Origin: Microbulbifer aggregans
GTDB taxonomy: Bacteria; Pseudomonadota; Gammaproteobacteria; Pseudomonadales; Cellvibrionaceae
Length of the DNA: 64,000 bases
Reading direction: 5' to 3'
Assembly (NCBI RefSeq): GCF_001750105.1
Contig: NZ_CP014143.1
Location: 3,255,501 to 3,319,500, forward strand
The notes under the pieces are model-generated. The model ran no database searches and was not told the DNA's origin. It was given only the letters and a program-made list of their open reading frames with translations. Made by a program: the position numbers and the translations under genes. Positions 36,413 to 64,000 of this stretch are shown here, in pieces; within the stretch, counting starts at the first letter, position 1; every line of letters begins with the position of its first letter.

Positions 36413-37588
36413 TCAGACCGACTCCGGCTCCGTAGAGTCCTTGGCCTGCGCAGGTACACTGCGGCGCTTGGGTGGCACCAGAGGCACCGTGTCCAGAGCC
36501 CACTTGAAGTGCGGATTGGCGCGACGACCTGGAGAAGGTATGGTAAATACCTTCTCCCCTTCAAAGGGCTTCATGGCTTTCGTATCAATTTTCCAGCCTT
36601 TTTCCTCGATATGCTTTCGGCGGATCATACGCCAGGCACCCATAAACTTGTCCTGCTCGACGGAAACTTCATGTTCCAGAGATTCCGGCAGGTAGTTGGG
36701 CGAGAGCTCGGCGACAATATCGCCATCTTCGCCGAAAACCTTCTTGGTGCGTTTCTTCGCACCATTATCGAAAATCGGCCACTTGAAGAAATTCCGTACC
36801 TGCACCGCAAATGAGCGCGTTGTATTCTCATCAATCGGCGTATTGGCATCGAAGATGATCATCTCCATCCAGGAGTTAACCTTGATATGCAGGCGAACAC
36901 AGTGACCAGGGAGATAGAAAGCCGGTGTCACATAGGTCGCCGCCTTGTCGGCACGGAAGAGCTTCATCAAGCCGAAGTTGCCTTCCAGTTGTGGCGGGTA
37001 CAGTACATTGTCTGAGGACCCCCAGTACTCGCCTCGATCCACTTTCAGGATCTCATTCTTGTCAGCCATTTCCTGGTAACCGAAGCCCGGGTGTACGAAG
37101 GCAGTATGGGCAATATCGATACCATTCTCGACGACACGGTCGACGGATCCAGTCCAGTTATAATCCACTTCAACCGCACGCCAATTGGCCTTGTCATCGT
37201 ACTCGGGGAATTCGGGAATCGGATAGCGCTCTTCTTCGGGGAGGTCCCCGAGGAATACCCAGATCATCCCGTAGCGCTCCTCTGTCGGGTAAGCATCGAT
37301 ACGGGCACGCTCAGGGATCGGAGCGCCTTCACCTCGGGACGGAATAAACTGCACTTTCCCCTCGGCATCGAATTCCCAGCCGTGGTAGGGACAGGCCACA
37401 CAATTGCGATCGGTCGTCCAACCTTTAGACAGTGAGCCGCCGCGATGGATACAGACATCGCTCAAGCAATTGACCTTGCCAGCCTTGTCGCGAAACAGAA
37501 CAAAGTTCTGCCCCAGTAATTTTACCCGTACCGGCTTGTCTTTTACCGCCTTGGACCATTCGGCCACATACCAAAGGTTCGTCAACAT
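36413..37588 (-). CDS. Rieske oxygenase resembling pheophorbide a oxygenase (PAO)
   Basis: This 391-aa Rieske non-haem iron oxygenase has the [2Fe-2S] ligands Cys46-x-His48 and Cys66-x2-His69 (CIHRGGSLSKGW and CPYHGW) and the mononuclear iron facial triad in VENGIDIAHTAFVH (Asn155, Asp158, His161, His166). The spacing and the HRGGSLSKG and CPYHGWEFDAEG segments fit the PAO/Tic55 branch, in which plant PAO opens the chlorin ring of pheophorbide a. Plant PAO has C-terminal membrane helices that are absent here, so this protein is soluble. ATG 37588 follows AAGGTGG. It is the last gene of a nine-gene operon whose wider cluster also has RCCR- and chlorophyll b reductase-like genes. A different aromatic substrate remains possible. 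Confidence 0.8.
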   Translation of the reverse strand: MLTNLWYVAEWSKAVKDKPVRVKLLGQNFVLFRDKAGKVNCLSDVCIHRGGSLSKGWTTDRNCVACPYHGWEFDAEGKVQFIPSRGEGAPIPERARIDAYPTEERYGMIWVFLGDLPEEERYPIPEFPEYDDKANWRAVEVDYNWTGSVDRVVENGIDIAHTAFVHPGFGYQEMADKNEILKVDRGEYWGSSDNVLYPPQLEGNFGLMKLFRADKAATYVTPAFYLPGHCVRLHIKVNSWMEMIIFDANTPIDENTTRSFAVQVRNFFKWPIFDNGAKKRTKKVFGEDGDIVAELSPNYLPESLEHEVSVEQDKFMGAWRMIRRKHIEEKGWKIDTKAMKPFEGEKVFTIPSPGRRANPHFKWALDTVPLVPPKRRSVPAQAKDSTEPESV

Positions 37589-37682
37589 GATTGCCACCTT
37601 AGTGTTTTTATATATCTATATTTCTTACGCAATCGCAGTAACCCAAGATTACTCGTTTTTGTCTTTCTTTTAATATTTGTCG

Positions 37683-38798
37683 TCAGACTTCCTGACTGGC
37701 ATTCACCAGGCTCGGATTGTGTTCACCCAGCTTCGGCAAACGCGTGTTTACCTGTGCTGGCTCATCCATGAACTTGATCGGCACACCCAGGTGACGGTTA
37801 CCCTGCACGTCTTCAAAAACCATCTGCCGGGCCTGGAGATGCTCCTCTGCCAGCGCCTCATGCAAGAGCCGCACAGGGGACCAGCAGACATCCAGCCCCT
37901 CAAACCACCTGCTCCAGTCAGCCAGTGTTCGACGAGAAAATTCCTGTTCCAGATAAGCGATCGCCTCACCCTGCTCTCCCGGTGAACGCCTGCAGATTTC
38001 TGCAAGTTCGGGGCGGCCTAGTTTGGCAAAAAGATTTTCCGCAAACTTAACTTCACTGCCACCCAGGGTCAGGTAGCGCCCGTCCGCTGTCCGGTAGACC
38101 CGATACATGGCATTGCCGCCCCAGGAACGCTCATTTTTGACCTCCGGCGAACGGTCCTCAGCAAAGACCGGACCGAGTGCGTTCGGAAGCCAGGCTACCA
38201 GGCTGTCCTGCATGGAGATATCCAGGTAATCGCCCTTGCCGGTCTCGGCCCGCCGCAGGAGTGCCATTAGTATGCCTGAAAGTGCCATTAACGATGCAGC
38301 CATATCTGCAACTGGCATTGCCGGGGAACAGGGTTCGCCGTTACTGCCTTCGTTGAGAAATACTGTTCCGGAATCTGCCTGAATACTGAGATCATGGGCT
38401 GGCTTCAGCCGCTTCGGGCCAGTCTGCCCGAAGGCGGAAATGGAACAGTAAACAAGGCCAGGGTTGCGAGCACTCAGGGTGGCGTAATCCAGACCCAGCC
38501 GGGCCATGGCGCCCGGGCGAAAGCCCTCAACGAAGACATCCGCGGTATCGATCAGCGAAAGCAGCTGCTCTCGCTGACCTTCATCTTTGAGGTTCAGGCA
38601 CAGGCTTTTCTTGCCACGATGAGTATTGCGGAACCAGACTGCTTCCCCATTTTTGCGCAGCCCGATATTACGAGACGGCTCACCGGCAGGAGGTTCCACT
38701 TTTATTACCTCGGCGCCGTGGTCTGCCATCATCATGGTCAGATGCGGCCCGGGTAGGAAGAGGGACAGGTCGACGACACGTATGCCTTGAAGCTTCAT
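37683..38798 (-). CDS. CaiB/BaiF family CoA-transferase
   Basis: This class III CoA-transferase (371 aa) moves CoA between carboxylic acids. It starts with the family pattern KLQGIRVVDLSLFLPGPH and contains MMADHGAEVIKVEPPAG, and the catalytic Asp lies in the YCSISAFGQTGPKRLKPAHDL segment. ATG 38798 is preferred to a TTG three codons upstream. It is 31 bp from the second CaiB gene in the operon that also has acyl-CoA dehydrogenase, MaoC and CitE. It probably activates or recycles a dicarboxylic acid produced from the ring fragments. Confidence 0.88.
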   Translation of the reverse strand: MKLQGIRVVDLSLFLPGPHLTMMMADHGAEVIKVEPPAGEPSRNIGLRKNGEAVWFRNTHRGKKSLCLNLKDEGQREQLLSLIDTADVFVEGFRPGAMARLGLDYATLSARNPGLVYCSISAFGQTGPKRLKPAHDLSIQADSGTVFLNEGSNGEPCSPAMPVADMAASLMALSGILMALLRRAETGKGDYLDISMQDSLVAWLPNALGPVFAEDRSPEVKNERSWGGNAMYRVYRTADGRYLTLGGSEVKFAENLFAKLGRPELAEICRRSPGEQGEAIAYLEQEFSRRTLADWSRWFEGLDVCWSPVRLLHEALAEEHLQARQMVFEDVQGNRHLGVPIKFMDEPAQVNTRLPKLGEHNPSLVNASQEV

Positions 38799-38838
38799 GG
38801 GCGGCAATGTCTCCAGTCAGATCGCAGTTGGGCCCGGT

Positions 38839-40035
38839 TCAGATGGCCCGCTCCGCTCGCAGAGAGTCAATCTCAGCGCTGGAATAACCGAGCCCCTTGA
38901 GCAGGTTCTCCGTGTCCGCGCCAAGCGATGAGCAACCGGTGCCCGAGGGCCTGTTTCCATCAAATTTTAACGGGCTAGCCAGGAGCTGGAATTGACTATT
39001 GTCAACGTGAGGTATTGGCTGAATCATACCGATGCCCGCCAACCATGGATTGTCCATCGCCTGGGGGAAGCTGTTCACCGGCGCCAGAGGGAGGCGGCCG
39101 CCGAAGCGATCCAGCCAATAACGGCTGGTATGCTGAGAGAGCTCAGCATCGAGGATTTCTGTCAGCGACTCGCGGTGGGCCCGGCGATCCGCAACCGTAG
39201 CAAACCGGGAATCCGTCAGCAGGTCTTCGCGACCCAACCCCTCCGCCAGCACCCGCCAGAACTTTTCCGTCATAGCCATGACAAACACCCAGCCATCCGC
39301 ACTGCGATAGATCTGACAGGGAACTGTGGAAGGGTGCCCGGAGCGCGATACCCGTTCTGTCTGATGACCGCGGTTAAGGTACCAGGTTGCGGGATAGGTA
39401 AGCTGGGTTACGGCCACGTCAAAGAGACTGACATCCACATCGCGGCCGACGCCGCCGCGCAATACGCCAACCAGGGCGCCCAGTACTGCCATCGCCAGCG
39501 TAACGCCACTGGTAAAGTCCACCATCGACAAGCCAAACCGGGCCGGTGGCGTACCCGGCTCACCAGTGAGATCCATAAAGCCAGCTTCCGCCTGCATCAG
39601 GTAGTCATACCCCGGCCAGCTGGCACGGTCATTGTCACGTCCGTAAGCGGAGAGGTGGCCGCAGATGATTTCCCGTTTCACGGAACCGAGGCTGTCGTAG
39701 TCCAGGCCAAGCTTTGCCGGCTGGTCTCCACGCAGGTTGTTCATCACAACATCGGCGCTTTGCACCATGCGCTCAAACACCTCGCGACCGCCCCGGCTCT
39801 TCAGATCGAGCGTCAGGCTCTTCTTGCTACGGTTGAATGTCTGGAAAAAATCACTGTCGTCGTCACCGAGAAAATAGGGCCCCGACTGCCGGGCGATATC
39901 ACCGCCCGTAGCGGGGTTTTCGATCTTGATGACTTCGGCACCCATGTCAGCGAGCTGCATGGAACCGAAGGGACCCGCACCGTACTGCTCAATGGCAATC
40001 ACGCGAATCCCAGACAGGGGTTTTGACGCCTCCAT
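38839..40035 (-). CDS. CaiB/BaiF family CoA-transferase (second)
   Basis: This 398-aa class III CoA-transferase starts SGIRVIAIEQYGAGPFGSMQL and contains ADMGAEVIKIENPATGGD and the Asp-bearing GHLSAYGRDNDRASWPGYD segment. Its start codon overlaps the stop of the acyl-CoA dehydrogenase (TGATG), which shows translational coupling. It is clearly different from the CaiB gene next to it, so the two probably use different acids. The acids themselves cannot be read from the sequence. Confidence 0.88.
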   Translation of the reverse strand: MEASKPLSGIRVIAIEQYGAGPFGSMQLADMGAEVIKIENPATGGDIARQSGPYFLGDDDSDFFQTFNRSKKSLTLDLKSRGGREVFERMVQSADVVMNNLRGDQPAKLGLDYDSLGSVKREIICGHLSAYGRDNDRASWPGYDYLMQAEAGFMDLTGEPGTPPARFGLSMVDFTSGVTLAMAVLGALVGVLRGGVGRDVDVSLFDVAVTQLTYPATWYLNRGHQTERVSRSGHPSTVPCQIYRSADGWVFVMAMTEKFWRVLAEGLGREDLLTDSRFATVADRRAHRESLTEILDAELSQHTSRYWLDRFGGRLPLAPVNSFPQAMDNPWLAGIGMIQPIPHVDNSQFQLLASPLKFDGNRPSGTGCSSLGADTENLLKGLGYSSAEIDSLRAERAI

Positions 40036-41204
40036 CAGATGGCCTCGCGTGCTGCAAGCTGTTTGGCGATGATGATGCGCTGCATCTCGTTCGTCCCCTC
40101 ACCAACGCACATCAGCATGGCATCCCGGTAGAAGCGCTCAATCTCGTATTCGGTGGAAAAACCGTAGCCACCGAAAATCCGCATGGCTTCCTGGGCACAG
40201 AACACACCCGCCTCACTGGCAAAGTACTTTGCCATGCCTGCTTCCATGTCACAGCGCTGGCCGGTGTCATACATACGGGCTGCCTGCTCAACCAGGAGTT
40301 TTGCCGCTTCCACTTTCGCGGCCATCTCTCCCAGCTTGAGCTGGATTGCCTGGTGCTGGATGATCGGTTTGCCGAAGGTTTCGCGCTCCTGGGCGTAGCG
40401 CACTGCAAGCTTCAGAGCGCCCTGTGCGATCCCTGCGCCACGCGCAGCGACGTTAATGCGGCCCAGCTCCAGACCACCAACGGCGATATGGAACCCACGC
40501 CCTTCCTCACCACCAACCAGGTTGTCGATTGGAACACGGAAGTCCTCGAATACCACTTCGGCGGTATCGATGGCCCGGTAGCAGGTTTTCTTGATCTTGT
40601 TGATGCTGATTCCCGGCAACAGGTTGCCGGCATCATCTTTGGTGCGGATCGCAAACATGGACATACCGCGATGCCGCGGCTCCGCATCGGGATCGGTCTT
40701 TACCAGCAGCGCAAGGCAGTTGCCGTTGAGGGCGTTAGTGATCCACATTTTGCTGCCATTGACCACATACTCGTCGCCATCACGCCGTGCCACACAGCGA
40801 ATTGCCTGCAGGTCCGAGCCGGCATTGGGCTCGGTCAATGCAATTCCCCCTCGCAACGTGCCCTCTGCCATGAGCGGCAGAAATTCCTGCTTCTGCTCCT
40901 CGGTACCGAAGCGCTCAATGGCTGCGGCCATGATCAGGTGGGAGTTGAAAATGCCACCCGGTGCCATCCACACGGCAGAAATCTTCTGCACGATACGCGC
41001 ATAGGTAGCAGCAGAAAGAGAGAGGCCGCCATAGGTTTCACCAATAGTGGCGCCGAACAGGCCCAGCTCCTTCATGGTTTCCACCAGCTCGTGGGGATAC
41101 TCGTCTGCGAGGTCCTTTTCCCGGGCGATGGGTGCGACTTCATTGGTCACGAAGCGATCGATGGTATCGAGGATCGCGCCCTCTTCTTCTGCACTCCAGC
41201 TCAT
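40035..41204 (-). CDS. Acyl-CoA dehydrogenase
   Basis: This 389-aa FAD enzyme oxidises an acyl-CoA to its 2,3-enoyl form. The family signatures are GGIALTEPNAGSDLQAIRC near residue 118 and QEAMRIFGGYGFSTEYEIERFYRDA near 340, quoted here in parts as FGGYGFSTEYEIE; the catalytic Glu precedes the RDAML segment region as in short-chain or glutaryl-type enzymes. AGGAGAAGG precedes ATG 41204. It lies between MaoC and CaiB genes in a coupled operon, so it acts on a CoA ester made by the transferases. Chain length specificity is unknown. Confidence 0.9.
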   Translation of the reverse strand: MSWSAEEEGAILDTIDRFVTNEVAPIAREKDLADEYPHELVETMKELGLFGATIGETYGGLSLSAATYARIVQKISAVWMAPGGIFNSHLIMAAAIERFGTEEQKQEFLPLMAEGTLRGGIALTEPNAGSDLQAIRCVARRDGDEYVVNGSKMWITNALNGNCLALLVKTDPDAEPRHRGMSMFAIRTKDDAGNLLPGISINKIKKTCYRAIDTAEVVFEDFRVPIDNLVGGEEGRGFHIAVGGLELGRINVAARGAGIAQGALKLAVRYAQERETFGKPIIQHQAIQLKLGEMAAKVEAAKLLVEQAARMYDTGQRCDMEAGMAKYFASEAGVFCAQEAMRIFGGYGFSTEYEIERFYRDAMLMCVGEGTNEMQRIIIAKQLAAREAI

Positions 41205-41231
41205 AACCTTCTCCTCTGGTCTCGCACCAGC

Positions 41232-41750
41232 TCAATAATTCACTTTGTCTTCCATTTCTGCACCACGCTTCCACACCAGCACTTTGCGCAGAAAGGTGCA
41301 AACCTCAGTACCATCCTGTTTGATGCCGCGGGTTCGTACGGTGACGATGCCCTGATTAGGACGTGATTTGGACTCACGCTTGTCGAGCACCTCGGACTCT
41401 GCGTAGAGGGTATCGCCGACAAAAAGCGGCGCACTCATGCGGATATCGTCCCAGCCCAGGTTGGCAATGGCCTTCTGGCTGATGTCGGTTACGCTCATAC
41501 CCACCATCAATGCCACAGTAAACGGGCTGCACACCAGTGGCTTACCGAACTCGGTACCTGCCGCATATTCCTTGTCGAAGTGCGCAGGATGCGTATTCAT
41601 GGTCAACAGGGTGAACCAGGTATTGTCCGTTTCGGTAATCGTGCGCCCGGGACGATGCTCGTAGGTATCACCTACCTTGAAGTCATCAAAAAAACGTCCA
41701 AACGTCTCTCGGTAGCGATTTTCACCGACCTGTTTTACTTCTCCAGCCAT
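41232..41750 (-). CDS. MaoC-family enoyl-CoA hydratase
   Basis: This 172-aa hot-dog fold protein probably hydrates an enoyl-CoA or mesaconyl-CoA-like ester. The MaoC hydratase features are FDDFKVGDTYEHRPGRTITETDN at the start, and HPAHFDKEYAAGTEFGKPLVC, which supplies the Asp-His type catalytic residues in the usual order; only segments are quoted. It sits between the CitE-like lyase and the acyl-CoA dehydrogenase. In the mesaconate and citramalate routes a MaoC hydratase acts just before a CitE lyase, and this adjacency suggests the same sequence of reactions here. Confidence 0.85.
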   Translation of the reverse strand: MAGEVKQVGENRYRETFGRFFDDFKVGDTYEHRPGRTITETDNTWFTLLTMNTHPAHFDKEYAAGTEFGKPLVCSPFTVALMVGMSVTDISQKAIANLGWDDIRMSAPLFVGDTLYAESEVLDKRESKSRPNQGIVTVRTRGIKQDGTEVCTFLRKVLVWKRGAEMEDKVNY

Positions 41751-41770
41751 AGGTAATTTCCCACTGCGAT

Positions 41771-43503: not shown

Positions 43504-43524
43504 CCCGGACAGCTCCCGAACCGC

Positions 43525-44376
43525 TTAATGATATTCCTCACCGCCCGAGACATTCATCGCCTCGCCGGTGATATAGGAAGCCTCTTCAGAACAGAGGAAA
43601 GCGCAGGCCTTGGCAACATCCTCCTGCAAGCCGGGGCGGCCGAGAGGAATTCGTGCACGCATATCTTCCATATAGCGGTCGTATCCCTTACCGGTGACCT
43701 CGGAAAAATGTGCGTTCTGCCAGGCACCCAGTCCGGTAGTGACGTGATTGGGGCAAATGGTGTTTACGGTAATTCCCGCTGACCCCAGTTCCTGCGCCGC
43801 AGCGCGAGTCAGCCCCACCAGTCCATGTTTGGAGGCGGTATAGGCCGCCGCATGGGCAAAGCCGGACTTGGAAGCCTGGCTGCCAATATTGATGATGCGA
43901 CCTCCGTGCCCCTGACGAAGCATGACTTCGGCCGCATACTTGATGCCGAGGAAGGCTCCACGCAGGTTCACCCCCAGCACTGCATCCCACTTGTCGACGG
44001 GCATCTCCACCACTGGCTGCATCAGGTAACCGATACCGGCGTTGTTGACCCAGATATCCAGGGAGCCGAAATGCCCCAGGGCAAACTCTGCTGCCGCCTG
44101 CACTTCCTGCGGCTCCAGAACATTGCAGGTATAGGTCGCGACATCGCCGCCGGCCGCACGGATTTCTGCCGCTATCTCCTCCATCTCAGCGGTGGTCCCC
44201 ACCGCTTGTGCAGGAAGATTCTCACCCGCCGCATGACCAATATCAGTCAGCACCACCCTGACGCCTTCCGCTGCCAGCCGTCTGGCCATGGCTTCGCCGA
44301 GCCCATCACGGCGCCCTGCTCCGGTAATTACCGCGACCTTGTCGCGCAATTCGGGATACTTGCCCTGTGTTTCCAT
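43525..44376 (-). CDS. Short-chain dehydrogenase/reductase
   Basis: This 283-aa SDR has the cofactor motif AVITGAGRRDGLGEAMA near residue 14, WVNNAGIGYLMQP near 107, the Ser in INIGSQASKSG and the catalytic YTASK. It is of the classical type. I start it at ATG 44376 after GAGGGGGC. The cofactor-binding region has Asp after the second strand (VVLTDIGH), which favours NAD. It is 11 bp downstream of the REDY-like gene. Its substrate is unknown; an alcohol or ketone side chain of a tetrapyrrole or its fragments would suit the context. Confidence 0.88.
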   Translation of the reverse strand: METQGKYPELRDKVAVITGAGRRDGLGEAMARRLAAEGVRVVLTDIGHAAGENLPAQAVGTTAEMEEIAAEIRAAGGDVATYTCNVLEPQEVQAAAEFALGHFGSLDIWVNNAGIGYLMQPVVEMPVDKWDAVLGVNLRGAFLGIKYAAEVMLRQGHGGRIINIGSQASKSGFAHAAAYTASKHGLVGLTRAAAQELGSAGITVNTICPNHVTTGLGAWQNAHFSEVTGKGYDRYMEDMRARIPLGRPGLQEDVAKACAFLCSEEASYITGEAMNVSGGEEYH

Positions 44377-44405
44377 CTTGTTGCGCCCCCTCACAAAGAC
44401 TGTAT

Positions 44406-45626: not shown

Positions 45627-45642
45627 CACAAGTCTCCCGCGA

Positions 45643-46308: not shown

Positions 46309-46451
46309 ACTGGTACATTCTTATTAATTGAGGTAACAATAACGACAAAAGGCTGACGCTGCACCCGGCATGCGGGACACCCGCCCCGGAGCCGAACTGC
46401 CAGAGCCCTTCCAGGGCTCAAACGAGCTCCGCGTTGCCGCATTAGGCATAT

Positions 46452-46469
46452 TGATATACCATTATAACA
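46452..46469. promoter_or_regulatory. Operator candidate TGATAT-N6-ATAACA
   Basis: Same architecture as the palindrome at 44770 with one mismatch in the left arm. It lies 36 bases before the isochorismatase start and in the divergent promoter of the membrane protein gene. Confidence 0.55.
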
Positions 46470-46504
46470 ACAATTACAATCCTGCCACTGATTCGGGGGC
46501 GACC

Positions 46505-49183: not shown

Positions 49184-49201
49184 TGTTATATCATTATGCG
49201 C
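49184..49201. promoter_or_regulatory. Half operator TGTTAT before the GntR gene
   Basis: The left arm of the cluster motif is present 28-45 bases upstream of the regulator's start codon; the right arm (ATGCGC) is poor. It could allow autoregulation. Confidence 0.35.
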
Positions 49202-49228
49202 TTTAACAAGGGCACAGGAGGCAATGCT

Positions 49229-54788: not shown

Positions 54789-55604
54789 ATGGACACTACA
54801 CAAAAACTGAGTAAAGAGTTTGTCGCGCATCTCGCCGATGAAATACATATCGATACCAGCGAGACTTTCGATGCGGTCATGACCACCCGAGACAAGGTGT
54901 GGGAAATGATCAAAAACAGCCTTTCCCTGAAGGAAGACAAGCGTTGTGCCGACCTGCACAGTTTCGATGACCTGAAGGGCGAACATGTGGGGCGGATGCG
55001 CACCTTCACTGGCGACACATCACCGGTAGACTGGATTATCCATTCCAATATCGGTATTCCCCAGAATACCTTCACCAACATCCACCTCACCATCTACCTG
55101 GATGACAGCGTGGAGGTTCCCCACCTGGGTATGGCATTCGGCACACTACCCAATGCGTTCTTCTACGTGGATCCCATGCCGCGCTACGAACCACTCAGCT
55201 ACCCGGAGCACGTAGAGGAATACCTCTCGCCGCTGAACGACATCTACATGAGTCTGCAGGACGAACTGTTCGAGGCCGGCATCAAGCCGTTCAATGCCGC
55301 CATGCCCTTCATCCGCGCGTCGCTTTCACCAGTGGCTCTTGCCGGAGTGGTACCGCTGGACTTTTATCGGGAGAAGGTAGAGCCAAAGATTTTTGCCTAT
55401 GTGGAATACTGGCTGAAGCTGGTGCACGCCGCCAAGAAAGTGGAAAACCCGGTTATCCGCACACAGCTCAAGCAACGTGACGCTCTGATTCGACGCAATA
55501 TCGTGCACCTGGATCCGGCCAACCCCATTGCTGAACGCTTGGTAGGCAAGCCATTGGCGGACCGCCTGGTACGCATTCTCTGCGCTGAGGAACGCACCCA
55601 GTAA
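54789..55604 (+). CDS. Red chlorophyll catabolite reductase (RCCR)-like protein
   Basis: This 271-aa protein resembles plant RCCR (ACD2), a ferredoxin-dependent bilin reductase family member that reduces the linear product of pheophorbide a oxygenase. Recalled plant sequence aligns over most of its length: TSPVDWIIHSNIG (residues 78-90) matches SSPIDFILGS, FFYVDPMPRY matches LILDLPHRK, the SLSPVALAG segment matches the plant Phe-Ser-Pro region, and QRDALIRRN (Arg230, Asp231) matches the Arg-Asp-x4-Arg-Arg block. No transit peptide is present, as expected. It lies 12 bp after the MFS gene and is followed by the lyase gene. I judge homology strong but substrate unproven; a bilin from haem is an alternative. 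Confidence 0.78.
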   Translation: MDTTQKLSKEFVAHLADEIHIDTSETFDAVMTTRDKVWEMIKNSLSLKEDKRCADLHSFDDLKGEHVGRMRTFTGDTSPVDWIIHSNIGIPQNTFTNIHLTIYLDDSVEVPHLGMAFGTLPNAFFYVDPMPRYEPLSYPEHVEEYLSPLNDIYMSLQDELFEAGIKPFNAAMPFIRASLSPVALAGVVPLDFYREKVEPKIFAYVEYWLKLVHAAKKVENPVIRTQLKQRDALIRRNIVHLDPANPIAERLVGKPLADRLVRILCAEERTQ

Positions 55605-55643
55605 CCGGGATTCCCATACTGCCCATACTGAGAGGAGCCAGGC

Positions 55644-56510
55644 ATGGCTGAGACATTACGGAAAATGCTGGCAACAAAAGCGGTACTCTCAGTACCGGGC
55701 ATCTATGACGGCCTGAGTGCCAGGCTGGTTGATTTGGCGGGGTTCGAGGCGGCTTTCCTCTCCGGCGCCTGCCTTTCTTTTGCACGCTTTGGCCGCCCGG
55801 ATCTGGGGCTTGTCAGTGCCGCGGAGGTCGCCGAGACAGTCGCGGTCATCCGCGAACGGACCCCCCTGCCCCTTATCGTGGACATAGACACTGGCTTCGG
55901 CAATGCCCTCAATGTGCAACGCACCGTGAACACCTTCGAGCGTGCGGGCGCAAGTGCTTTGCAGATGGAAGATCAACTGATGCCAAAGCGCTGTGGGCAT
56001 ATGCGCGGCAAGCAGGTCATCAGTAGTGGAGAGATGGTCGGTAAGATTCACGCGGCGCTGGACGCGCGGCATAGTGAAGACACACTGATTTTTGCCCGCA
56101 CGGATGCCCTTGGGGTGAACGGTTTCGAAGACGCCCTGGAGCGGGCCGAGCGCTATCTCGAGGCCGGTGCAGACGCGATATTTGTAGAAGCCCCAACAAG
56201 CCTGGAACAGATGCAGTGTATCGGCGAGCGCTTTGGTAGCCGCATTCCCCTGATTCACAACCTGGTTGAAGGCGGACGCTCTCCGGTTCAATCCGCCCGG
56301 GAACTGGAAGCGCTGAACTACCGCATCGCCCTGTTTCCCGCCTCGCTTCTCCACCTGCTGATCCCGACTGCGCAGAATATGCTGACGCAGTTACGCCGCG
56401 ATGGCCACCTGGAAGATCTGCGCAACCAGATGATCGATCTTTCTGTAGTCAACGAGCTGCTCGGAGCCGAAGAGCTGCTGGCCAAGAGCAAACAATACGA
56501 GTATGAGTAA
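55644..56510 (+). CDS. Isocitrate lyase/PEP mutase superfamily lyase (2-methylisocitrate or dimethylmalate lyase-like)
   Basis: This 288-aa enzyme has the superfamily motifs LPLIVDIDTGFGNA near residue 76 and MEDQLMPKRCGHMRGK near 110; the KRCGH signature marks active lyases of the PrpB and dimethylmalate type rather than PEP mutases. It would split a 2-methylisocitrate- or 2,3-dialkylmalate-like acid into pyruvate and a short-chain acid. The gene is between the RCCR-like and aldehyde dehydrogenase genes. Methyl- and ethyl-substituted malates are just the acids expected from pyrrole-derived maleates, which makes dimethylmalate-lyase activity attractive. Confidence 0.85.
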   Translation: MAETLRKMLATKAVLSVPGIYDGLSARLVDLAGFEAAFLSGACLSFARFGRPDLGLVSAAEVAETVAVIRERTPLPLIVDIDTGFGNALNVQRTVNTFERAGASALQMEDQLMPKRCGHMRGKQVISSGEMVGKIHAALDARHSEDTLIFARTDALGVNGFEDALERAERYLEAGADAIFVEAPTSLEQMQCIGERFGSRIPLIHNLVEGGRSPVQSARELEALNYRIALFPASLLHLLIPTAQNMLTQLRRDGHLEDLRNQMIDLSVVNELLGAEELLAKSKQYEYE

Positions 56511-56524
56511 GACGGTAAGCCTTT

Positions 56525-57997
56525 ATGAGCGGTAATTATCAGCTACCCGAACTGAAAAACTATATCGACGGGACGTTTTCGACACCCGCTGTTGACCGCG
56601 GTCACAGCCTACACGACGCCAATACGGGAGCGCTGCTGCAGCAGCGCCGAAGCTGCAACCACGAACAGGTACAGGCAGCCCTGCAGGCAGCAGATCGCGT
56701 CCACCGCGCCGGAACCTGGGAGAACACACCAGCCTCGGAGCGCGCCGAACTGCTGGACAAGCTCGCAGAAGAATTGGCCGGGGAGGAGACCGCGCGAACA
56801 ATCAGCACCGCCGACAGTATCACCTCCGGTGCCGTCATCCGTACCACCCGGAAAATGGCCAACATTCTGCCGCTGGTTTTTCGGGGTGCCGCGGCCTATC
56901 TCCGGGAAGGACACCTGGACAAAAAGGTACCTGGCCCCTGTGGCGAAGTTGACTACCTGCGCAGACCCTGGGGGCCAGCACTACTGATTGCCCCGTGGAA
57001 CGGCCCTACTGCCATCGGCTCTCATAAAGTAGCCAGCGCGTTGGCGGCGGGGGCGCCGTGTATTCTCAAGCCATCAGAATTTACCCCGCACTCCGCTATC
57101 ATGATGGCGCGTGCAGCCCAACGGGCCGGCATACCCGAAGGTGTATTCCAGCTGACTCTGGGTGACCGTACCATCGGTGCACAGATGGTGGAGGACCCAC
57201 GGATCAAGGCCGTATCCTTCACCGGAGGCCTTGCGGGTGGACGTGCGATTGCACGCGCCTGTGCGGATGACTTCATCCCCACCCAACTCGAGCTCGGCGG
57301 CAATAATCAGCTTGTGGTCTTTGCTGACGCCGATCTGGACCGGGCTGCCACGGGAGTTGTGTACGGCCTCACCAATCTCAATGGGCAGTGGTGCCGGGCT
57401 CTGGGACGCTTGCTGGTGCAGGAATCGGTCAAAGACGTGCTGCTGGATAAGGTGCTGAGCCTGCTGTCCACTATCCACCTAGGCCACTCGCTGGACGAGG
57501 AAAGCGATATGGGGCCACTGGTGCACCGCGGTCACTACGATCAGGTACTGTCGGATCTCGAGCGCCTGCAAAACCGTGGCGGGCATCTGCTCTCGTCCAC
57601 CCCACTGCCGGACCTGGCCGGTAACTTTGTCGCACCGACCCTGGTCGATGGTTGCGACCCGGCAGACACGCGGGAGGAGATATTTGGTCCGGTAGCCGCT
57701 GTGCACAGTTTCCGCAACGATGACGAAGCACTGGCACTCGCCAATGGCACAGACCTCGGTCTGGCGGGCTATGTCTACAGCAGTGACGAGACAAAGGCGT
57801 TTGCCTTTGCCAGGAAAATGCGTACCGGTGGAGTCAAAATCAACGGCTATAGCCTGCTCAGCATTGGCGAGGGCACACCGCGGGGCGCCTGGGGGCTGTC
57901 AGGACTGGGGGAAGAAGGCCACGCTCAGTCGATAGAGTTCTTCACCGGCGCCCGAGTGATCGGCATATCACCCCAGGATGCCCTGGGAGGGCGCTAA
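56525..57997 (+). CDS. Aldehyde dehydrogenase
   Basis: This 490-aa NAD(P)-dependent enzyme oxidises an aldehyde to the acid. The catalytic Cys is in NLNGQWCRALGRLL near residue 297, the general-base Glu in LELGGNNQLVVFADADLD near 263, and the cofactor segment FTGGLAGGRAIARA and EIFGPVAAVHSF are in place. It ends the plus-strand operon of the cluster, 15 bp after the lyase gene. Its natural aldehyde is unknown; it could come from a side chain or meso-carbon released during ring breakdown. Confidence 0.9.
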   Translation: MSGNYQLPELKNYIDGTFSTPAVDRGHSLHDANTGALLQQRRSCNHEQVQAALQAADRVHRAGTWENTPASERAELLDKLAEELAGEETARTISTADSITSGAVIRTTRKMANILPLVFRGAAAYLREGHLDKKVPGPCGEVDYLRRPWGPALLIAPWNGPTAIGSHKVASALAAGAPCILKPSEFTPHSAIMMARAAQRAGIPEGVFQLTLGDRTIGAQMVEDPRIKAVSFTGGLAGGRAIARACADDFIPTQLELGGNNQLVVFADADLDRAATGVVYGLTNLNGQWCRALGRLLVQESVKDVLLDKVLSLLSTIHLGHSLDEESDMGPLVHRGHYDQVLSDLERLQNRGGHLLSSTPLPDLAGNFVAPTLVDGCDPADTREEIFGPVAAVHSFRNDDEALALANGTDLGLAGYVYSSDETKAFAFARKMRTGGVKINGYSLLSIGEGTPRGAWGLSGLGEEGHAQSIEFFTGARVIGISPQDALGGR

Positions 57998-58004: not shown

Positions 58005-58007
58005 AGC

Positions 58008-58454
58008 TCAATCCACCAGGGCAATCTGCTCTTCTTGAAGCGGCTGTGAAATCTCGATGACGGCCTTGGAGAATTTAGGCGGCCCGAATCGCGGAACATG
58101 ACCATTGGAGAGCCCCACGGGCTCCTTGGGAATGCCGATAAAATTACTGTCCATCTTGCCGTTGGCATTGTTGTCATGGTGAACACTGATCGCGTAGGAC
58201 CCGTAGGGCAGCTTCAGCTCGATCGCCAAGGTGCCCTCTTCCATCCCTTCAAGCCCGACTACCTGTTCAATCACCTTGGTGTCGCCAAGGAAAGTGTCTT
58301 TGGAGTCGTAGACTGAGACGTACAGCTTGCCGACCTGTGACTGGATATTGGAAACCCTGAGCTTTACTGTCGCGGAGTTCTCATCCGCAAGAGCAGTGCA
58401 ACTGAAGAGTGTAAATAGCAGGATTTGGAACAGCCGAACGTATGGATTAGTCAT
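58008..58454 (-). CDS. Exported DUF2141-family protein
   Basis: This 148-aa protein has a signal peptide (hydrophobic core LFQILLFTLFSCTALA) and one DUF2141 domain with the typical SVHHDNNANGKMDSNFIGIPKEP motif near residue 90. The function of the family is unknown; members are periplasmic or outer-membrane-associated small beta proteins. Starts at 58475, 58463 and 58454 are possible. It follows the HMG-CoA lyase-like gene and may share its transcript, but it has no clear catabolic role. Confidence 0.85.
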   Translation of the reverse strand: MTNPYVRLFQILLFTLFSCTALADENSATVKLRVSNIQSQVGKLYVSVYDSKDTFLGDTKVIEQVVGLEGMEEGTLAIELKLPYGSYAISVHHDNNANGKMDSNFIGIPKEPVGLSNGHVPRFGPPKFSKAVIEISQPLQEEQIALVD

Positions 58455-58519
58455 CGGTGAGATCCCCATTGGCACCGGCAGCCTGCCGGTGATCTTTTAG
58501 TTACGTCGCCAGGCAGACT

Positions 58520-59437
58520 TCAGATGAGCGGCGCACTTTTTTCGAGCTGCAACCGGCGCCAGGTATCCGCACGTCCCCCTGTGACAGTATGCAGCATCCC
58601 ACCGACCAACGTCCCTGCATCCATCAGGGCCTCCAGGTCGATACCGGTATCAAAGCCCATTTGCTCCAGCAACATCACCACATCTTCACTGGCAGCATTA
58701 CCCGTCGCGCCCGGCGCGAAAGGACATCCGCCAATCCCACCCACGGCGCTATCAAATTTTCGTACGCCCGATTCCAGTGCGGCATAGAGATTAGCCAGCG
58801 CCAGTGCCCGGGTATCATGGAAATGGCACGCAAGCCGTGCTGCACCGTACTCCCGCGCGAGTGCCCCCATCAGGCGGTTAACTGACTGCGGGTTGGCAGC
58901 GCCAATAGTATCGGCGATATTCACGTCAGCTGCCCCGAGGTCGAAGAGCTGGCCAGCGAGATCAAGCACCTTGCCCGGGTCAGTCTTTCCCTCAAACGGG
59001 CACTGCCACGCGACCGCAATACAACCCACCACCCGGATGCCATCCTTTTGAGCCACCCGGCAGATTTCCCCTGCCTGCTGCAGGGATGTCTCAATGGACA
59101 TCCGCACATTACGCTGATTCATGGTTTCACTGGCACAGACAACCAGCACTACTGTATCGGCACCTGCGTTACATGCCAGCTGGTAGCCCTTAAGATTGGG
59201 AATCAATACCTGGCAATCAACCCCGGAATCCCTGGGCAACCCGGCGAGAACCTGATCGGTATTGGCCATCGCCGGCACGGCCTTGGGGGATACAAAAGCC
59301 CCCGCCTCCACCGACCGGACACCCGCTGCGATCAACGCCCGGATCAACTGAACCCGCTGCTCTACGGTCAATACCCGCGGCTGATTCTGCAATCCGTCTC
59401 GCGGACCCACATCATTGAGTAAAATCTTTTCACGCAT
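58520..59437 (-). CDS. HMG-CoA lyase-family enzyme
   Basis: This 305-aa TIM-barrel lyase has the metal-binding start NDVGPRDGLQNQPRVLT, the ADTIGAANPQSVNRLMG segment, HFHDTRALALANLYAALESG and the flexible-loop Cys motif VGGIGGCPFAPGATGN, all as in HMG-CoA lyases. It would split a 3-hydroxy-3-methylglutaryl-CoA-like ester into acetoacetate (or a homologue) and acetyl-CoA. GGAGC precedes the ATG. It follows a CaiB-type CoA-transferase gene, so the substrate ester may be formed by that enzyme. Side-chain acids of the pyrrole rings are candidates. Confidence 0.88.
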   Translation of the reverse strand: MREKILLNDVGPRDGLQNQPRVLTVEQRVQLIRALIAAGVRSVEAGAFVSPKAVPAMANTDQVLAGLPRDSGVDCQVLIPNLKGYQLACNAGADTVVLVVCASETMNQRNVRMSIETSLQQAGEICRVAQKDGIRVVGCIAVAWQCPFEGKTDPGKVLDLAGQLFDLGAADVNIADTIGAANPQSVNRLMGALAREYGAARLACHFHDTRALALANLYAALESGVRKFDSAVGGIGGCPFAPGATGNAASEDVVMLLEQMGFDTGIDLEALMDAGTLVGGMLHTVTGGRADTWRRLQLEKSAPLI

Positions 59438-59457
59438 CCTGTGCTCCGCCCCAAAAA

Positions 59458-60657
59458 TCAGCCTGCATCACCGTCCTCTTTCAGAGCATCGATATCGGCC
59501 TGCGTATAACCACACAACTCAGCGAGGATTTGGTCCGTGTGTTCCCCGATATGGGGAGCCGGAGAGAAGGAGTCTTCGTGGGTTCGTGAGAGCTTGATCG
59601 GATTGCCGGGCGCTTTGGTCTTCTTGCCATTGGGGTGAGAGAGTTCAACCACCATATTGCGGTGCAGCACTTGCGGATCGCTGAGTGCGCGTTCAAGGTT
59701 ATTGATCGGCGCACAGGGGATACGCTGCTTCTCCAGCTTTGCCAGCCACGCATCGGTGGTGTCAGTGGCGAATACTTCAGCGAGTCGCCCATCGATAAAG
59801 GCCTTATCCGCAAACCGTCCGGGCTGCCCGTCGTACTTCGGGTCGTCGAATTCCGGCACCATCACTACTTCCTTCAGATTCTGCCAGAAGTTGTCCGTGA
59901 TCACGGCGATAATAATGAAACCATCGGCCGTGGAATAGCTGTTGTAAGGTACATGCACGAAATGTGCATTACCGATCGGGTATGGGTTCTTCCCACTGAG
60001 GAAGTGCATGGTGGCCATGTAGTTCAGCATGGAAATCTGGCAGTCCACCATGGAAATATCGACATGCTGGCCACGGTCACTGGTCGCGCGCTCTGCGATG
60101 GCAGCGAGAATCCCCATCACCGCAAACATGCCGCCTCCAAGATCGCCAATGGGAATGCCCGCACGCACAGGGTTTGCCGGGTCGTCTCCGGTAATGGACA
60201 TTCCACCACCGTAGGCCTGGGCCACCTGGTCAAACGCCGGGCGTTTTGCTCCGGGACCATCTGAGCCAAATCCAGAGACACAACAGGTAATGATGCGCGG
60301 GTTGATTTCGCTCAGGCGCTCATAGTCGATACCCAGCCGCTCCGGCACGCCGGGACCAAAATTGCTGATGACCACGTCCGCCTCTTTGACCAGGTCATAA
60401 AAAACCTGACGGCCACGCTCACTCTTCAGGTTCAGCGCCACACTGCGCTTGTTGCGATTCAGGGTCAGGTAGTATGCGCCGAAACCATCGATAGAGTTTT
60501 CCGGGTCATTGGCGAGAAGTTTGCGGGTACCCTCCCCTGCCAGAGGTTCTACCTTGATCATGTCTGCACCGAGATCGGCAAGGATCATCGCGCCGTATGG
60601 TCCGGAGAGCATATGGGTCAAATCGAGAACACGAATACCCTTCAGTGCCTTATTCAT
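59458..60657 (-). CDS. CaiB/BaiF family CoA-transferase (third)
   Basis: This 399-aa class III CoA-transferase starts NKALKGIRVLDLTHMLSGPYG and contains ILADLGADMIKVEPLAGEGTR and the Asp region CVSGFGSDGPGAKRPAFDQ. ATG 60657 follows AGGGGTG. It is placed between a membrane protein gene and the HMG-CoA lyase-like gene, in the transcript with the second TonB receptor upstream. Together with the two CaiB genes at 37.7-40.0 kb this gives three CoA-transferases, each probably for a different acid. Confidence 0.88.
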   Translation of the reverse strand: MNKALKGIRVLDLTHMLSGPYGAMILADLGADMIKVEPLAGEGTRKLLANDPENSIDGFGAYYLTLNRNKRSVALNLKSERGRQVFYDLVKEADVVISNFGPGVPERLGIDYERLSEINPRIITCCVSGFGSDGPGAKRPAFDQVAQAYGGGMSITGDDPANPVRAGIPIGDLGGGMFAVMGILAAIAERATSDRGQHVDISMVDCQISMLNYMATMHFLSGKNPYPIGNAHFVHVPYNSYSTADGFIIIAVITDNFWQNLKEVVMVPEFDDPKYDGQPGRFADKAFIDGRLAEVFATDTTDAWLAKLEKQRIPCAPINNLERALSDPQVLHRNMVVELSHPNGKKTKAPGNPIKLSRTHEDSFSPAPHIGEHTDQILAELCGYTQADIDALKEDGDAG

Positions 60658-60705
60658 CGGAAACACACCCCTGTACTTGCTAATTTTCTCAGGACACTAT
60701 CGCTT

Positions 60706-61674: not shown

Positions 61675-61776
61675 TGCAGTTACCTCTTGTTATCACTGCA
61701 TTTATTATTCTTTCTTGGCAACCTCTTTTACCGGCAACCCGCCCGCGACACAAGGTCGCGGGCGGACTTCCCGGAA

Positions 61777-64000
61777 TCAGAAGTTGTAGCTGAGACGCAG
61801 ACCCGTGGTTCGCGGTTCCGGCAATAGCAACTCTATCCCCTGGGGCGTAAAGGCTGCCCCCGGAAGATGTCCGTAATCCACATTATTGAGTCCGACTTTA
61901 ACCTTGTCGTCATCCAGAAGATTATTGACATAGAGCACGAGATCGAGACTATCGAAGCTAAGGCCACCCTGGAAATCTACCAGCCAGTATTCCGGTAACC
62001 AGGCATTGTTGCCACGGTCGAGATAGCGCTTGGACTCATAGTTACCCAACAGCTCGGTGAAATACCCGACACCATTGGCAAACTCGCCGTCATACCGCAT
62101 GGACAACATGGATGCGTGTTTGGCGGAATTCAGAAACTGCATGCCGGAGTAGTCGCCTTCGGCGGTGCCGGTCCACAGTTTGTCCAGCGTACCCGGCCTT
62201 CCCACATCGGCAATGGTGTAATCTTTCACTTCCGTGTCGCTCAGCACATAGCTGGCGAGGAAGGTCCAGTTCACCGTCGGGCGATAAATGGCACTCAGCT
62301 CGAGGCCCTGCAATTCACTTTTACCCGCATTGGTTACGACAGCATTCTGGGTGCCGGTATTTGGGTCGAATACGAAGTGAGAAATCTGCTGGTTGGTATA
62401 GTCATACAGGTAAATGGCGCCATTGACCTGCAGTCGGTTATCCAGCACATTGCTCTTGAAACCCGCCTCATAGACGGACAGCTCTTCGGGCTTGTACTCC
62501 CCGGTGGTGATAATGCCGTCACCGTCTGCCGTGGACATTCCGCCGGGCTTGAACCCTTCCGAGTAGGAGGTGTAAAGCATCAGGTTATCCAGTGCCTGCC
62601 AGTCCAAACTCACCCGTGGAACAAACGCGCGGTCAGTGCGGGAATAGGTCTGCTCACCGGGATCGGCCGGCATGAAGGTCACCGGATCCAGAACCGGAAT
62701 GCCCATCAAGCCATTGAACTGTGTGCTCAGCGGCACACTGCGGTAGTCGATATCTTCCTCGAGATAGCGGCCTTCCGCAGTCACACGCCAGTCCTCGGCG
62801 AGGTTGTAGTTCAGCGAGAAAGCCACAGACACGTGATCGGTATCGCGCTTCATGGGAATCGGAAGCGGCACCGGTGACGTGCGATGATCCACCAGTCCAA
62901 AGCCGCCCATCCACTGATCCAGGTAAGCATCCCAGAATGTCTTGTCCACGCCCTCACGCAGCCACCACTGCTGGTTCATCACCGTATCCATGGTTTCGGA
63001 CCAGTAGAGCGCGCTGGTTTGCCAGTCGAGTTTACCTGCGCTACCTGTCAGCCGGAATTCCTGACTGAACTGCGCGGATTCGAAAGTGGTGTCACTATTC
63101 GCATTTACCCCGTACTGGGTGTACTCACCGGGGAAGCCCGGCGGAATGAACATGCCGGATCCGGGACCCAGAGACTGGAGCGTAAAGTTCGTGCGGTCAA
63201 AGTCAGACTGTGTGCGGGAATCGTTGTAGTTGACCCCGGTGAGGGACAGGAACTCATAATTGTCCATCTCCAGCTTCAGCTCCAGCGAGGAGCGCGCACC
63301 GCGTACAGAGGTACCGGCAAAGTCGCGACCGGTCAGTGGATCGGGAGACAAGTCAATTTCGCTTTCTGAGGCACTGCTCAGTTCACCCACGATGACCGTG
63401 CCACATGCAGCCGGGCCCCCAACGAGATGGGCATAAGGGGAAGACATGGCACAGTCGGCGTCGGTGGTGCCGGTGCCGGCAATCGGCCGTATTTCCGCGT
63501 AAGGGCCAACGGAACCAAGGAGCGCAAAATCAAACGGAGAGGAACCGGTATGCACGACTGACTGGCGCTGCACGATGGGGCGCTGGGAATACTTGGCCTC
63601 ACTGTATTCTGCTCGCCAGTAGGTGGAGAACTTCTCATCCGGGGTCCAGTTCACCGCTGCGGCAATGCCATCAGACTCTACGGTGCCGAGGTTACCCCCC
63701 GTATTGGGGTTGTCGTAGTAGCCATCGAATTCGGTTTTTGCCACATTGAGTGACGCAGCCAGAACACCGGGCACGATGGGCAGATTACCGCTCGCCTGCA
63801 TCTTGCCATAGCCGTGCTCGGTGGCATCCACCGCAAAACGGGCTTCCGGCGCCTCGCCCGGGCGCTTGGTGATGTAATTGACTGCGCCGGAGAATGCAGA
63901 GCGGCCGTACACCGCGCTTTGCGGCCCCTTGACGACCTCCACCCGCTCCAGATCGAACAGGTCCAGGTTGGGCCCATTGCCACTGCCGCCAGTGGTCATG
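61777..64000 (-). CDS. TonB-dependent outer-membrane receptor (second; 5' end beyond window)
   Basis: At least 741 codons of a TonB receptor are visible; the signal peptide, TonB box and first part of the plug lie off the right edge. The plug end DLFDLERVEVVKGPQSAVYG and the barrel are present, with the C-terminal GLRLSYNF ending in Phe. It differs from the receptor at 28563, yet both have the same overall type. It lies upstream of the membrane protein, CaiB and HMG-CoA lyase genes on the same strand, which suggests uptake of the pathway's substrate. Confidence 0.92.
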   Translation of the reverse strand, partial: MTTGGSGNGPNLDLFDLERVEVVKGPQSAVYGRSAFSGAVNYITKRPGEAPEARFAVDATEHGYGKMQASGNLPIVPGVLAASLNVAKTEFDGYYDNPNTGGNLGTVESDGIAAAVNWTPDEKFSTYWRAEYSEAKYSQRPIVQRQSVVHTGSSPFDFALLGSVGPYAEIRPIAGTGTTDADCAMSSPYAHLVGGPAACGTVIVGELSSASESEIDLSPDPLTGRDFAGTSVRGARSSLELKLEMDNYEFLSLTGVNYNDSRTQSDFDRTNFTLQSLGPGSGMFIPPGFPGEYTQYGVNANSDTTFESAQFSQEFRLTGSAGKLDWQTSALYWSETMDTVMNQQWWLREGVDKTFWDAYLDQWMGGFGLVDHRTSPVPLPIPMKRDTDHVSVAFSLNYNLAEDWRVTAEGRYLEEDIDYRSVPLSTQFNGLMGIPVLDPVTFMPADPGEQTYSRTDRAFVPRVSLDWQALDNLMLYTSYSEGFKPGGMSTADGDGIITTGEYKPEELSVYEAGFKSNVLDNRLQVNGAIYLYDYTNQQISHFVFDPNTGTQNAVVTNAGKSELQGLELSAIYRPTVNWTFLASYVLSDTEVKDYTIADVGRPGTLDKLWTGTAEGDYSGMQFLNSAKHASMLSMRYDGEFANGVGYFTELLGNYESKRYLDRGNNAWLPEYWLVDFQGGLSFDSLDLVLYVNNLLDDDKVKVGLNNVDYGHLPGAAFTPQGIELLLPEPRTTGLRLSYNF

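What the first reader, a model, noticed from the sequence alone, without database searches (positions are those of the whole stretch)
36413..64000. A bacterial chlorophyll-type tetrapyrrole catabolic cluster
Seen: homologues of three plant chlorophyll-breakdown enzymes, a PAO-like Rieske oxygenase (36413-37588), an NYC1/NOL-like SDR (52578-53375) and an RCCR-like protein (54789-55604), are encoded within 20 kb, with amide hydrolases, CoA-thioester enzymes, carriers and a TonB receptor. Known: in plants these enzymes act on chlorophyll b, pheophorbide a and its ring-opened product. Inferred: this bacterium imports chlorophyll-like pigments, opens the ring and uses the fragments for carbon and nitrogen. 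Such a complete cluster is not something I recall as described.
Basis: partly seen in the sequence, partly recalled or inferred. Interest (0 to 1): 0.95.

Follow-up and report, generated by a model that had tools for sequence, protein, structure and literature searches.

The report
Bacterial gene island for eating chlorophyll
A marine bacterium carries a 68-kb block of catabolic genes, parts of which recur in several other bacterial groups, with three relatives of the plant enzyme that handles opened chlorophyll; it is predicted to open chlorophyll-type pigments and would likely turn the pieces into food, which may help explain where the green matter of the world goes.

Summary
The window's RCCR-like gene is a true Pfam RCC_reductase. 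The cluster runs from about 34.8 to 103 kb in window numbering, 39 kb of it past the window end, with a second RCCR homologue and a third, divergent protein whose predicted fold has Arabidopsis RCCR as Foldseek's first hit. The genus is Microbulbifer; 7 of 37 genus genomes carry RCCR, and exactly those 7 carry RCCR3 and a twin-barrel calycin. Core genes (Rieske oxygenase, NOL-like SDR, esterase, RCCRs, calycin; nitrilase-type, flavin monooxygenase, maleamate amidase-like and maleate isomerase-like) recur in three other families of the order, Anaerolineae, Actinomycetota and 'Deltaproteobacteria'. Of the three plant homologies, RCCR is confirmed, NYC1/NOL is plausible (tested only against recalled sequences) and PAO is not met: the oxygenase is VanA/NdmA-like without the PaO domain. 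Heme oxygenase (own genome) and photosynthetic reaction centre (15 carriers) were not found. Best reading: a catabolic pathway for exogenous chlorophyll-type tetrapyrroles, with plant-like ring opening by a different oxygenase and a nicotinate-like lower route. The substrate is inferred, not shown.

The parts
34843..36297 (+). SSF sodium:solute symporter, left end of the island
   Evidence: Pfam SSF 204.6 bits; found in 5 of 6 other Microbulbifer islands
36413..37597 (-). Rieske oxygenase, VanA/NdmA type; proposed macrocycle-opening enzyme (inferred)
   Evidence: Rieske + VanA_C; motifs invariant in 14 rows; no PaO domain; found in 6 of 6 other Microbulbifer islands
37683..38807 (-). CoA-transferase family III
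   Evidence: Pfam
38839..40035 (-). CoA-transferase family III
   Evidence: Pfam
40035..41204 (-). acyl-CoA dehydrogenase
   Evidence: Pfam
41232..41750 (-). MaoC / mesaconyl-CoA hydratase-like
   Evidence: Pfam MC_hydratase 91.7 bits, MaoC 75.3 bits
41771..42619 (-). HpcH/HpaI-type lyase
   Evidence: Pfam 105.5 bits
42604..43503 (-). PuuE-like cyclic amide/imide hydrolase (polysaccharide deacetylase fold)
   Evidence: TIGR03212 249 bits, below its 424.6 cut-off; PDB PuuE 4.1e-64
43525..44394 (-). SDR oxidoreductase (third SDR)
   Evidence: Pfam; weaker match to recalled NOL/NYC1
44958..45674 (-). glutathione S-transferase-like
   Evidence: Pfam
45643..46308 (-). conserved protein without Pfam family
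   Evidence: found in 6 of 6 other Microbulbifer islands
46370..47173 (+). isochorismatase-family amidohydrolase (maleamate amidase-like, inferred)
   Evidence: Pfam 104.3 bits; beside the two PuuE-like genes in G312, G323 and G594
47256..48218 (+). PuuE-like cyclic amide hydrolase
   Evidence: Pfam, NCBIfam below cut-off
48197..49159 (+). PuuE-like cyclic amide hydrolase
   Evidence: Pfam, NCBIfam below cut-off
49196..50011 (+). GntR/UTRA regulator
   Evidence: Pfam
50762..52459 (-). CN_hydrolase (nitrilase superfamily), two matched stretches
   Evidence: Pfam 153.4 bits; paralogue past the window at 73999-75711
52578..53375 (+). SDR1, NOL/NYC1-like short-chain reductase
   Evidence: Pfam adh_short; 125.8 bits over most of its length to recalled NOL
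53445..54776 (+). MFS transporter
   Evidence: Pfam
54789..55604 (+). RCCR1, red chlorophyll catabolite reductase homologue
   Evidence: PF06405 41.5 bits, over cut-off; 44 database hits, one of them (P0044) covering only 23%
55644..56510 (+). PrpB/2,3-dimethylmalate lyase-type C-C lyase
   Evidence: Pfam PEP_mutase; PDB CPEP mutase, methylisocitrate lyase, 2,3-dimethylmalate lyase 3.2e-46
56525..57997 (+). aldehyde dehydrogenase
   Evidence: Pfam
58008..58475 (-). DUF2141 protein
   Evidence: Pfam
58520..59437 (-). HMG-CoA lyase-like
   Evidence: Pfam
59458..60666 (-). CoA-transferase family III
   Evidence: Pfam; relatives beside RCCR1 relatives in Anaerolineae loci such as L063, L070, L074, L075
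60706..61674 (-). conserved protein without Pfam family
   Evidence: found in 4 of 6 other Microbulbifer islands
61777..64000 (-). TonB-dependent receptor (runs on to 64380 beyond the window); proposed pigment uptake (inferred)
   Evidence: Pfam barrel and plug; full frame

Best explanation
This is a 68-kb catabolic gene island that is predicted to import chlorophyll-type tetrapyrroles, open the ring and likely mineralise the pyrrole pieces for carbon and nitrogen. Proposed steps, all inferred from family and linkage: a TonB receptor and MFS carriers take up phaeo-pigments; a chlorophyllase/PETase-like esterase removes an ester; NOL-like reductases act on a formyl or keto group; a VanA/NdmA-type Rieske oxygenase, fed by a rubredoxin-rubredoxin reductase fusion, opens the macrocycle (doing the job of plant PAO without being PAO); three RCCR-superfamily proteins act on the linear tetrapyrrole, RCCR3 being the likeliest reductase since it alone keeps an acid at the Glu154 position; a twin-barrel calycin carries the pigment; flavin monooxygenases, nitrilase-type and PuuE-type hydrolases cut it to lactams, imides and maleamates; isochorismatase-type amidases release ammonia; maleate-isomerase-like, CoA-transferase, hydratase and lyase enzymes take the alkylated C4 acids to pyruvate and acyl-CoAs. 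Shown here: families, predicted fold of RCCR3, conservation and linkage. Not shown: any substrate, activity or order of steps.
Against: No substrate or activity is known for any member. The Rieske enzyme lacks the PaO domain and its profile is nearest to SxtDIOX/NdmA. RCCR1 (18 of 18) and RCCR2 (19 of 19) have Ala/Val where Arabidopsis RCCR has Glu154. The fold is also in FtsHi-motor-complex chains, which are not known to me as bilin enzymes. The own esterase is below the Chlorophyllase cut-off (19.7 against 26). No Mg-dechelatase was found, though that search had no positive control. The NOL likeness rests on recalled sequences. SDR2 and RCCR3 belong to large families. RCCR1 itself was found in none of the six core-bearing non-genus genomes. 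Bilins would explain the RCCR-type proteins as well.
Confidence: 0.62

Rival explanations
1. The island degrades linear bilins (phycobilins or heme-derived biliverdin/bilirubin) and not chlorophyll; RCCR-type proteins act as bilin reductases and the Rieske enzyme attacks a side chain.
Against: No heme oxygenase in own genome (other carriers not tested); the RCCR2 profile prefers RCCR over FDBR by about 15 orders of magnitude in E-value; an esterase and NOL-like SDR are linked to RCCR2 and the Rieske gene, and bilins carry no ester (recalled).
Confidence: 0.2
2. The island degrades another alkylpyrrole or N-heterocycle (for example a prodiginine-like or nicotinate-like compound), and the RCCR-type proteins have been recruited to it.
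For: FAD monooxygenase, alpha/beta hydrolase, isochorismatase and maleate isomerase-like genes parallel the nicotinate (nic) route (the nic gene set is recalled); RCCR1/2 lack Glu154.
Against: Three RCCR-superfamily proteins, a nitrobindin/CpeS-like calycin and NOL-like SDRs together point to a tetrapyrrole.
Confidence: 0.1
3. Detoxification only: the genes protect an alga-associated bacterium from phototoxic chlorophyll derivatives (compare PAO-like genes of amoebae that are induced by light with green prey, PMC6898599, passages), without using them as food.
For: An association of carriers with algae or phototrophic mats is recalled, from no call.
Against: The CoA-transferases, hydratases, lyases and amidases, and the TonB receptor, are not needed for detoxification.
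Confidence: 0.06

Closest known systems
Plant PAO/phyllobilin pathway of chlorophyll breakdown (NYC1/NOL, esterase, PAO, RCCR)
   Same: RCCR homologues, NOL-like SDRs, an esterase and a Rieske oxygenase encoded together
   Different: Rieske enzyme is VanA/NdmA-like without the PaO domain; three RCCR-type proteins, two without Glu154; no Mg-dechelatase found (no control); a lower catabolic route follows, whereas plants store phyllobilins (recalled)
Ferredoxin-dependent bilin reductases and pre-PcyA clusters of heterotrophic bacteria (PMC10151467, passages)
   Same: Same fold superfamily, in non-photosynthetic bacteria
   Different: No heme oxygenase in own genome; no V4R or globin gene among the island proteins scanned; RCCR2 profile closer to RCCR; catabolic neighbours
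Aerobic nicotinate (nic) degradation (gene set recalled)
   Same: FAD monooxygenase, alpha/beta hydrolase, maleamate amidase-like and maleate isomerase-like genes side by side
   Different: Placed beside RCCR-type, Rieske and nitrilase-type genes; extra hydratases and a dimethylmalate lyase-like enzyme that would suit alkylated acids
BFA1/DUF3598 twin calycins
   Different: 7-9% identity; catabolic context; only one of five models confident

Membership tests
RCC reductase family (PF06405) | Score over the curated cut-off | tested here: met
   RCCR1 41.5 and RCCR2 53.9 bits, cut-off 24.9; RCCR3 only 12.5
RCC reductase family (PF06405) | Acid at the position of Arabidopsis Glu154 (catalytic role recalled) | tested here: not met
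   RCCR1 Ala 18 of 18, RCCR2 Ala 10/Val 9 of 19; RCCR3 Asp 14 of 14
RCCR/FDBR fold superfamily | Fold of RCCR3 | tested here: met
Pheophorbide a oxygenase | Rieske plus PaO (PF08417) domain | tested here: not met
   0 of 14 rows with PaO; no PaO match in own genome, control rang in 2 genomes. PMC2716323 says bacterial relatives of PaO generally lack the motif, so wider kinship is not excluded
NYC1/NOL chlorophyll b reductase | Similarity beyond generic SDRs, C-terminal part included | tested here: inconclusive
   SDR2 156.9 bits, SDR1 125.8 bits to recalled NOL; third SDR 53.7-74.8 bits; best solved SDR for SDR2 105.3 bits over residues 2-207. Plant sequences typed from recall
Chlorophyllase | Pfam Chlorophyllase over cut-off | tested here: not met
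   own 19.7 bits, cut-off 26; 5 of 11 rows match at E 0.01 or better, PETase 7 of 11; Ser-Asp-His candidates invariant in 11 rows
Plant chlorophyll breakdown pathway | STAY-GREEN Mg-dechelatase (PF12638) | tested here: inconclusive
   0 of 15 carriers, but no control genome rang
Heme oxygenase bilin pathway | Heme oxygenase PF01126 in the genome | tested here: not met
   No match in own genome, control rang in 3; other carriers not tested
Turnover of own (bacterio)chlorophyll | Photosynthetic reaction centre PF00124 | tested here: not met
   0 of 15 carriers, control rang in Synechococcus; carriers G285 and G390 were not put in
Nicotinate (nic) pathway | Maleate isomerase- and maleamate amidase-type genes | tested here: met
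   Best solved relative maleate cis-trans isomerase 1.4e-13; isochorismatase 131.1 bits
Nicotinate (nic) pathway | NicX dioxygenase and NicAB hydroxylase | not tested
   no search made
Chlorophyll catabolic system | Activity on a chlorophyll derivative | not testable with these tools
   needs enzyme or growth assays

The most novel reading that the evidence does not exclude
A widespread bacterial pathway mineralises chlorophyll: a Rieske oxygenase outside the PAO family opens the ring, RCCR3 reduces the product, and RCCR1/RCCR2, which have lost the catalytic acid but keep the fold shared with coproporphyrinogen oxidase, do new chemistry on linear tetrapyrroles before a nic-like route takes each pyrrole to central metabolism.
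Probability: 0.4. Interest if true: 0.95.

Novelty: new variant of a known kind. Interest (0 to 1): 0.87.

Why it matters
Vast amounts of chlorophyll vanish each year (recalled), yet our library searches listed no described bacterial gene cluster that opens and consumes the tetrapyrrole (open-access papers only and several listings cut, so not proof). If right, the genes give markers for chlorophyll and phaeo-pigment turnover in sea and mats, new oxygenases and RCCR-type enzymes for pigment chemistry, and a case of recruitment: plant-like RCCR with a different ring-opening oxygenase. The RCCR3 family alone has 1590 database proteins at E 0.001 or better; among the 120 listed, those with an organism name are Microbulbifer, Biformimicrobium, Halioglobus, Halieaceae or Pseudomonadales.

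Tried and rejected
PAO membership of the Rieske protein by its domain: not met; no tree with plant PAO was made. Own bacteriochlorophyll turnover: no reaction centre in 15 carriers (G285 and G390 not put in). Heme route: no heme oxygenase in own genome; not tested in the other carriers. Plasmid carriage: RCCR2 has no match in the plasmid collection. Viral carriage: 20 stretches matched a RCCR3 pattern, none encodes a relative. RCCR3 profile against PDB sequences found nothing useful, so fold search was used. U79895 is not related to the calycin by hhalign (0.4%), while a protein of the Anaerolineae/Actinomycetota/'Delta' loci is (96.9%). Asp291: HMM alignments pair it with an invariant Asp of RCCR1/2, MAFFT is one column off. 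Tree: RCCR3 is a 100/100 group; Arabidopsis RCCR falls with RCCR2, but on a 3.74-long branch flagged as unsafe, so no claim is made on it. Class-wide search for RCCR3: 1 of 185 genomes, own; order: 12 of 390. Around the RCCR3-type matches of G285 (three of seven looked at) and G390 (one of five looked at) I saw no cluster, apart from a 35% Rieske match about 4 kb from one of them in G285; G456 was a carrier but was not fetched. Papers: passages read of PMC10151467, PMC4950323, PMC2716323, PMC6898599 and PMC13193486; all others seen as listings only. Listings were cut (30 of 83; 30 of 227; 15 of 22; 10 of 120).
Full report
What is there. The window is G000:C1:3255501-3319500 of a 3.86-Mb single-contig genome. 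The RCCR-like protein (54789-55604, here RCCR1) passes the Pfam RCC_reductase cut-off (41.5 against 24.9 bits). The genome holds a second one, RCCR2, at window-equivalent 100263-101084 (53.9 bits), 36 kb past the window end. Reading on shows that the cluster continues to about 103 kb: two maleate-isomerase-like proteins (Amdase family), FAD monooxygenase, isochorismatase, alpha/beta hydrolases, aldehyde dehydrogenase, ACAD-fold flavoenzyme, a second CN_hydrolase, a second NOL-like SDR, a rubredoxin-rubredoxin reductase fusion, flavin reductase, HMGL-like lyase, CoA-transferase, amidase, two MmgE/PrpD, an aconitase pair and an esterase with sub-threshold Chlorophyllase/PETase matches. In all the island spans about 34.8-103.0 kb in window numbering.

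The organism. RCCR occurs in 7 of 37 genus genomes (own included) and in 0 of 21 other order members of that sample. Gene order is largely kept in the six others, with exceptions: G015 is reduced and rearranged; G008 has no RCCR2 (one PF06405 match); in G033 RCCR2 lies about 106 kb from RCCR1 and part of the island was outside the fetched stretch. In own, G002, G008 and G033 the island lies beside the SAM synthetase/AdoHcyase genes; in G015 and G018 those genes are not in the 100 kb fetched; in G020 the stretch ended at the island's edge. This suggests movement or rearrangement.

Active-site residues. That Glu154 and Asp291 are catalytic in Arabidopsis RCCR is recalled. In the alignment the Glu154 column holds Ala in 18 of 18 RCCR1 rows, Ala (10) or Val (9) in 19 RCCR2 rows and Asp in 14 of 14 RCCR3 rows. 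Asp291 pairs with an invariant Asp of RCCR1/2 in the HMM alignments but is one column off in MAFFT. So RCCR3 is the likeliest reductase, and RCCR1/2 may do something else.

The other two plant homologies. The Rieske protein has Rieske and VanA_C domains; 14 of 14 rows match VanA_C and none PaO; PaO matches nothing in the genome while the control rang. Nearest solved structures to its profile are SxtDIOX, NdmA and SxtT. CxH/CxxH and the N-x2-D-x2-H-x4-H iron motif are invariant in 14 rows, so it should be an active oxygenase. It may do PAO's job but does not meet PAO's domain test; PMC2716323 (passages) notes that bacterial relatives of PaO generally lack the motif, so distant kinship stays open. 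SDR1 and SDR2 match recalled NOL at 125.8 and 156.9 bits over most of their length, against at most 74.8 bits (NYC1) for the third SDR, while the best solved SDR for SDR2 scores 105.3 bits over residues 2-207. This supports NOL-likeness but hangs on recalled sequences.

Conservation beyond the genus. The scan of genome contigs gave 38 loci, 6 of them titled Microbulbifer. Among the other 32, counting loci cut by contig ends as misses, tblastn finds the Rieske gene over 200 bits in 11, RCCR3 over 150 bits in 10, the esterase over 150 bits in 10, the second CN_hydrolase over 190 bits in 17 and the FAD monooxygenase over 200 bits in 17. In Anaerolineae L084 the order is RCCR2, esterase, Rieske, RCCR3, calycin, SDR, flavin reductase, HMGL, aconitase pair, CoA-transferase; similar sets stand in L080, L081, L082 (Actinomycetota) and L089 ('Deltaproteobacteria'). 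Other Anaerolineae loci (e.g. L075) have CN_hydrolase, RCCR1, FAD monooxygenase, ALDH, MFS, maleate-isomerase-like, alpha/beta hydrolase, isochorismatase and CoA-transferase. Across the order, 12 of 390 genomes have RCCR3, nine of them outside the genus. I fetched stretches of eight of these nine; in six (three families) RCCR3 lies with Rieske, SDR2, RCCR2-type, calycin, CN_hydrolase, ACAD-type, FAD monooxygenase, isochorismatase and maleate-isomerase-like genes, the esterase in five of the six, RCCR1 in none. Around the matches looked at in G285 and G390 there is no such cluster. In the 58-genome sample RCCR, RCCR3 and calycin mark exactly the same seven genomes; relatedness means these are not seven independent events.

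The lower route. The PrpB-type lyase is related to CPEP mutase, methylisocitrate and 2,3-dimethylmalate lyases, one Amdase-family protein to maleate cis-trans isomerase, the deacetylase-fold protein to PuuE allantoinase. Together with isochorismatase-type amidases, CoA-transferases, MaoC/mesaconyl-CoA hydratase-like and HpcH/HpaI-type genes this is what would be needed to turn alkylated maleimides, usual oxidative fragments of tetrapyrroles (recalled; PMC12860425 and PMC11833878 seen in the listing only), into ammonia, pyruvate and acyl-CoAs. This is inference.

Rivals and limits. No heme oxygenase in the own genome and no reaction centre in 15 carriers count against heme and self-made pigment. 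Phycobilins remain possible. No Mg-dechelatase was found, but that search lacked a positive control. The own esterase is under the Chlorophyllase cut-off. Nothing here shows a substrate.

What is known. PMC10151467 (passages) puts RCCRs and related sequences, those of Ca. Schekmanbacteria included, in the outgroup of bilin reductases; the passages I saw describe no catabolic cluster for them. PMC2716323 reports RCCR in Nostoc and Anabaena; PMC6898599 finds PAO-like genes in amoebae and a few gammaproteobacteria. My library searches listed no bacterial cluster of this kind; several listings were cut, and subscription papers are not covered.

Noticed in passing
15624-20322: A GOLLD RNA (16755-17227, 184 bits) amid 23 tRNA matches on the minus strand, one of them (17091-17161) inside the GOLLD stretch.
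   Followed up: no
G285 and G390 (L117-L122): Two genomes of another family of the order hold 7 and 5 RCCR3-profile matches at separate places; no cluster was seen around those looked at: a paralogue expansion of unknown use.
   Followed up: partly
L080:6832-9944, L088:3352-14174, L082:14348-16973: Anaerolineae, 'Delta' and Actinomycetota loci add a second calycin-like protein (hhalign 96.9% to the first), a DUF3891 protein (Pfam in L080, by eye in L088 and L082) and a MetE-like methyltransferase (Pfam in L088, by eye in L079).
   Followed up: partly
50031-50957 (-): ORF overlapping the CN_hydrolase gene; weak tblastn matches lie next to CN_hydrolase genes in other loci, so part of it may be a real small gene.
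   Followed up: no
P0198/P0133, P0213/P0159, P0208/P0060, P0257/P0095: RCCR3-family and SDR2-family proteins share source and longest-contig length (16173, 15592, 819387, 10443), suggesting linkage.
   Followed up: no
28563-31205 (-): A second TonB-dependent receptor just outside the island, next to AdoHcyase and SAM synthetase genes.
   Followed up: no
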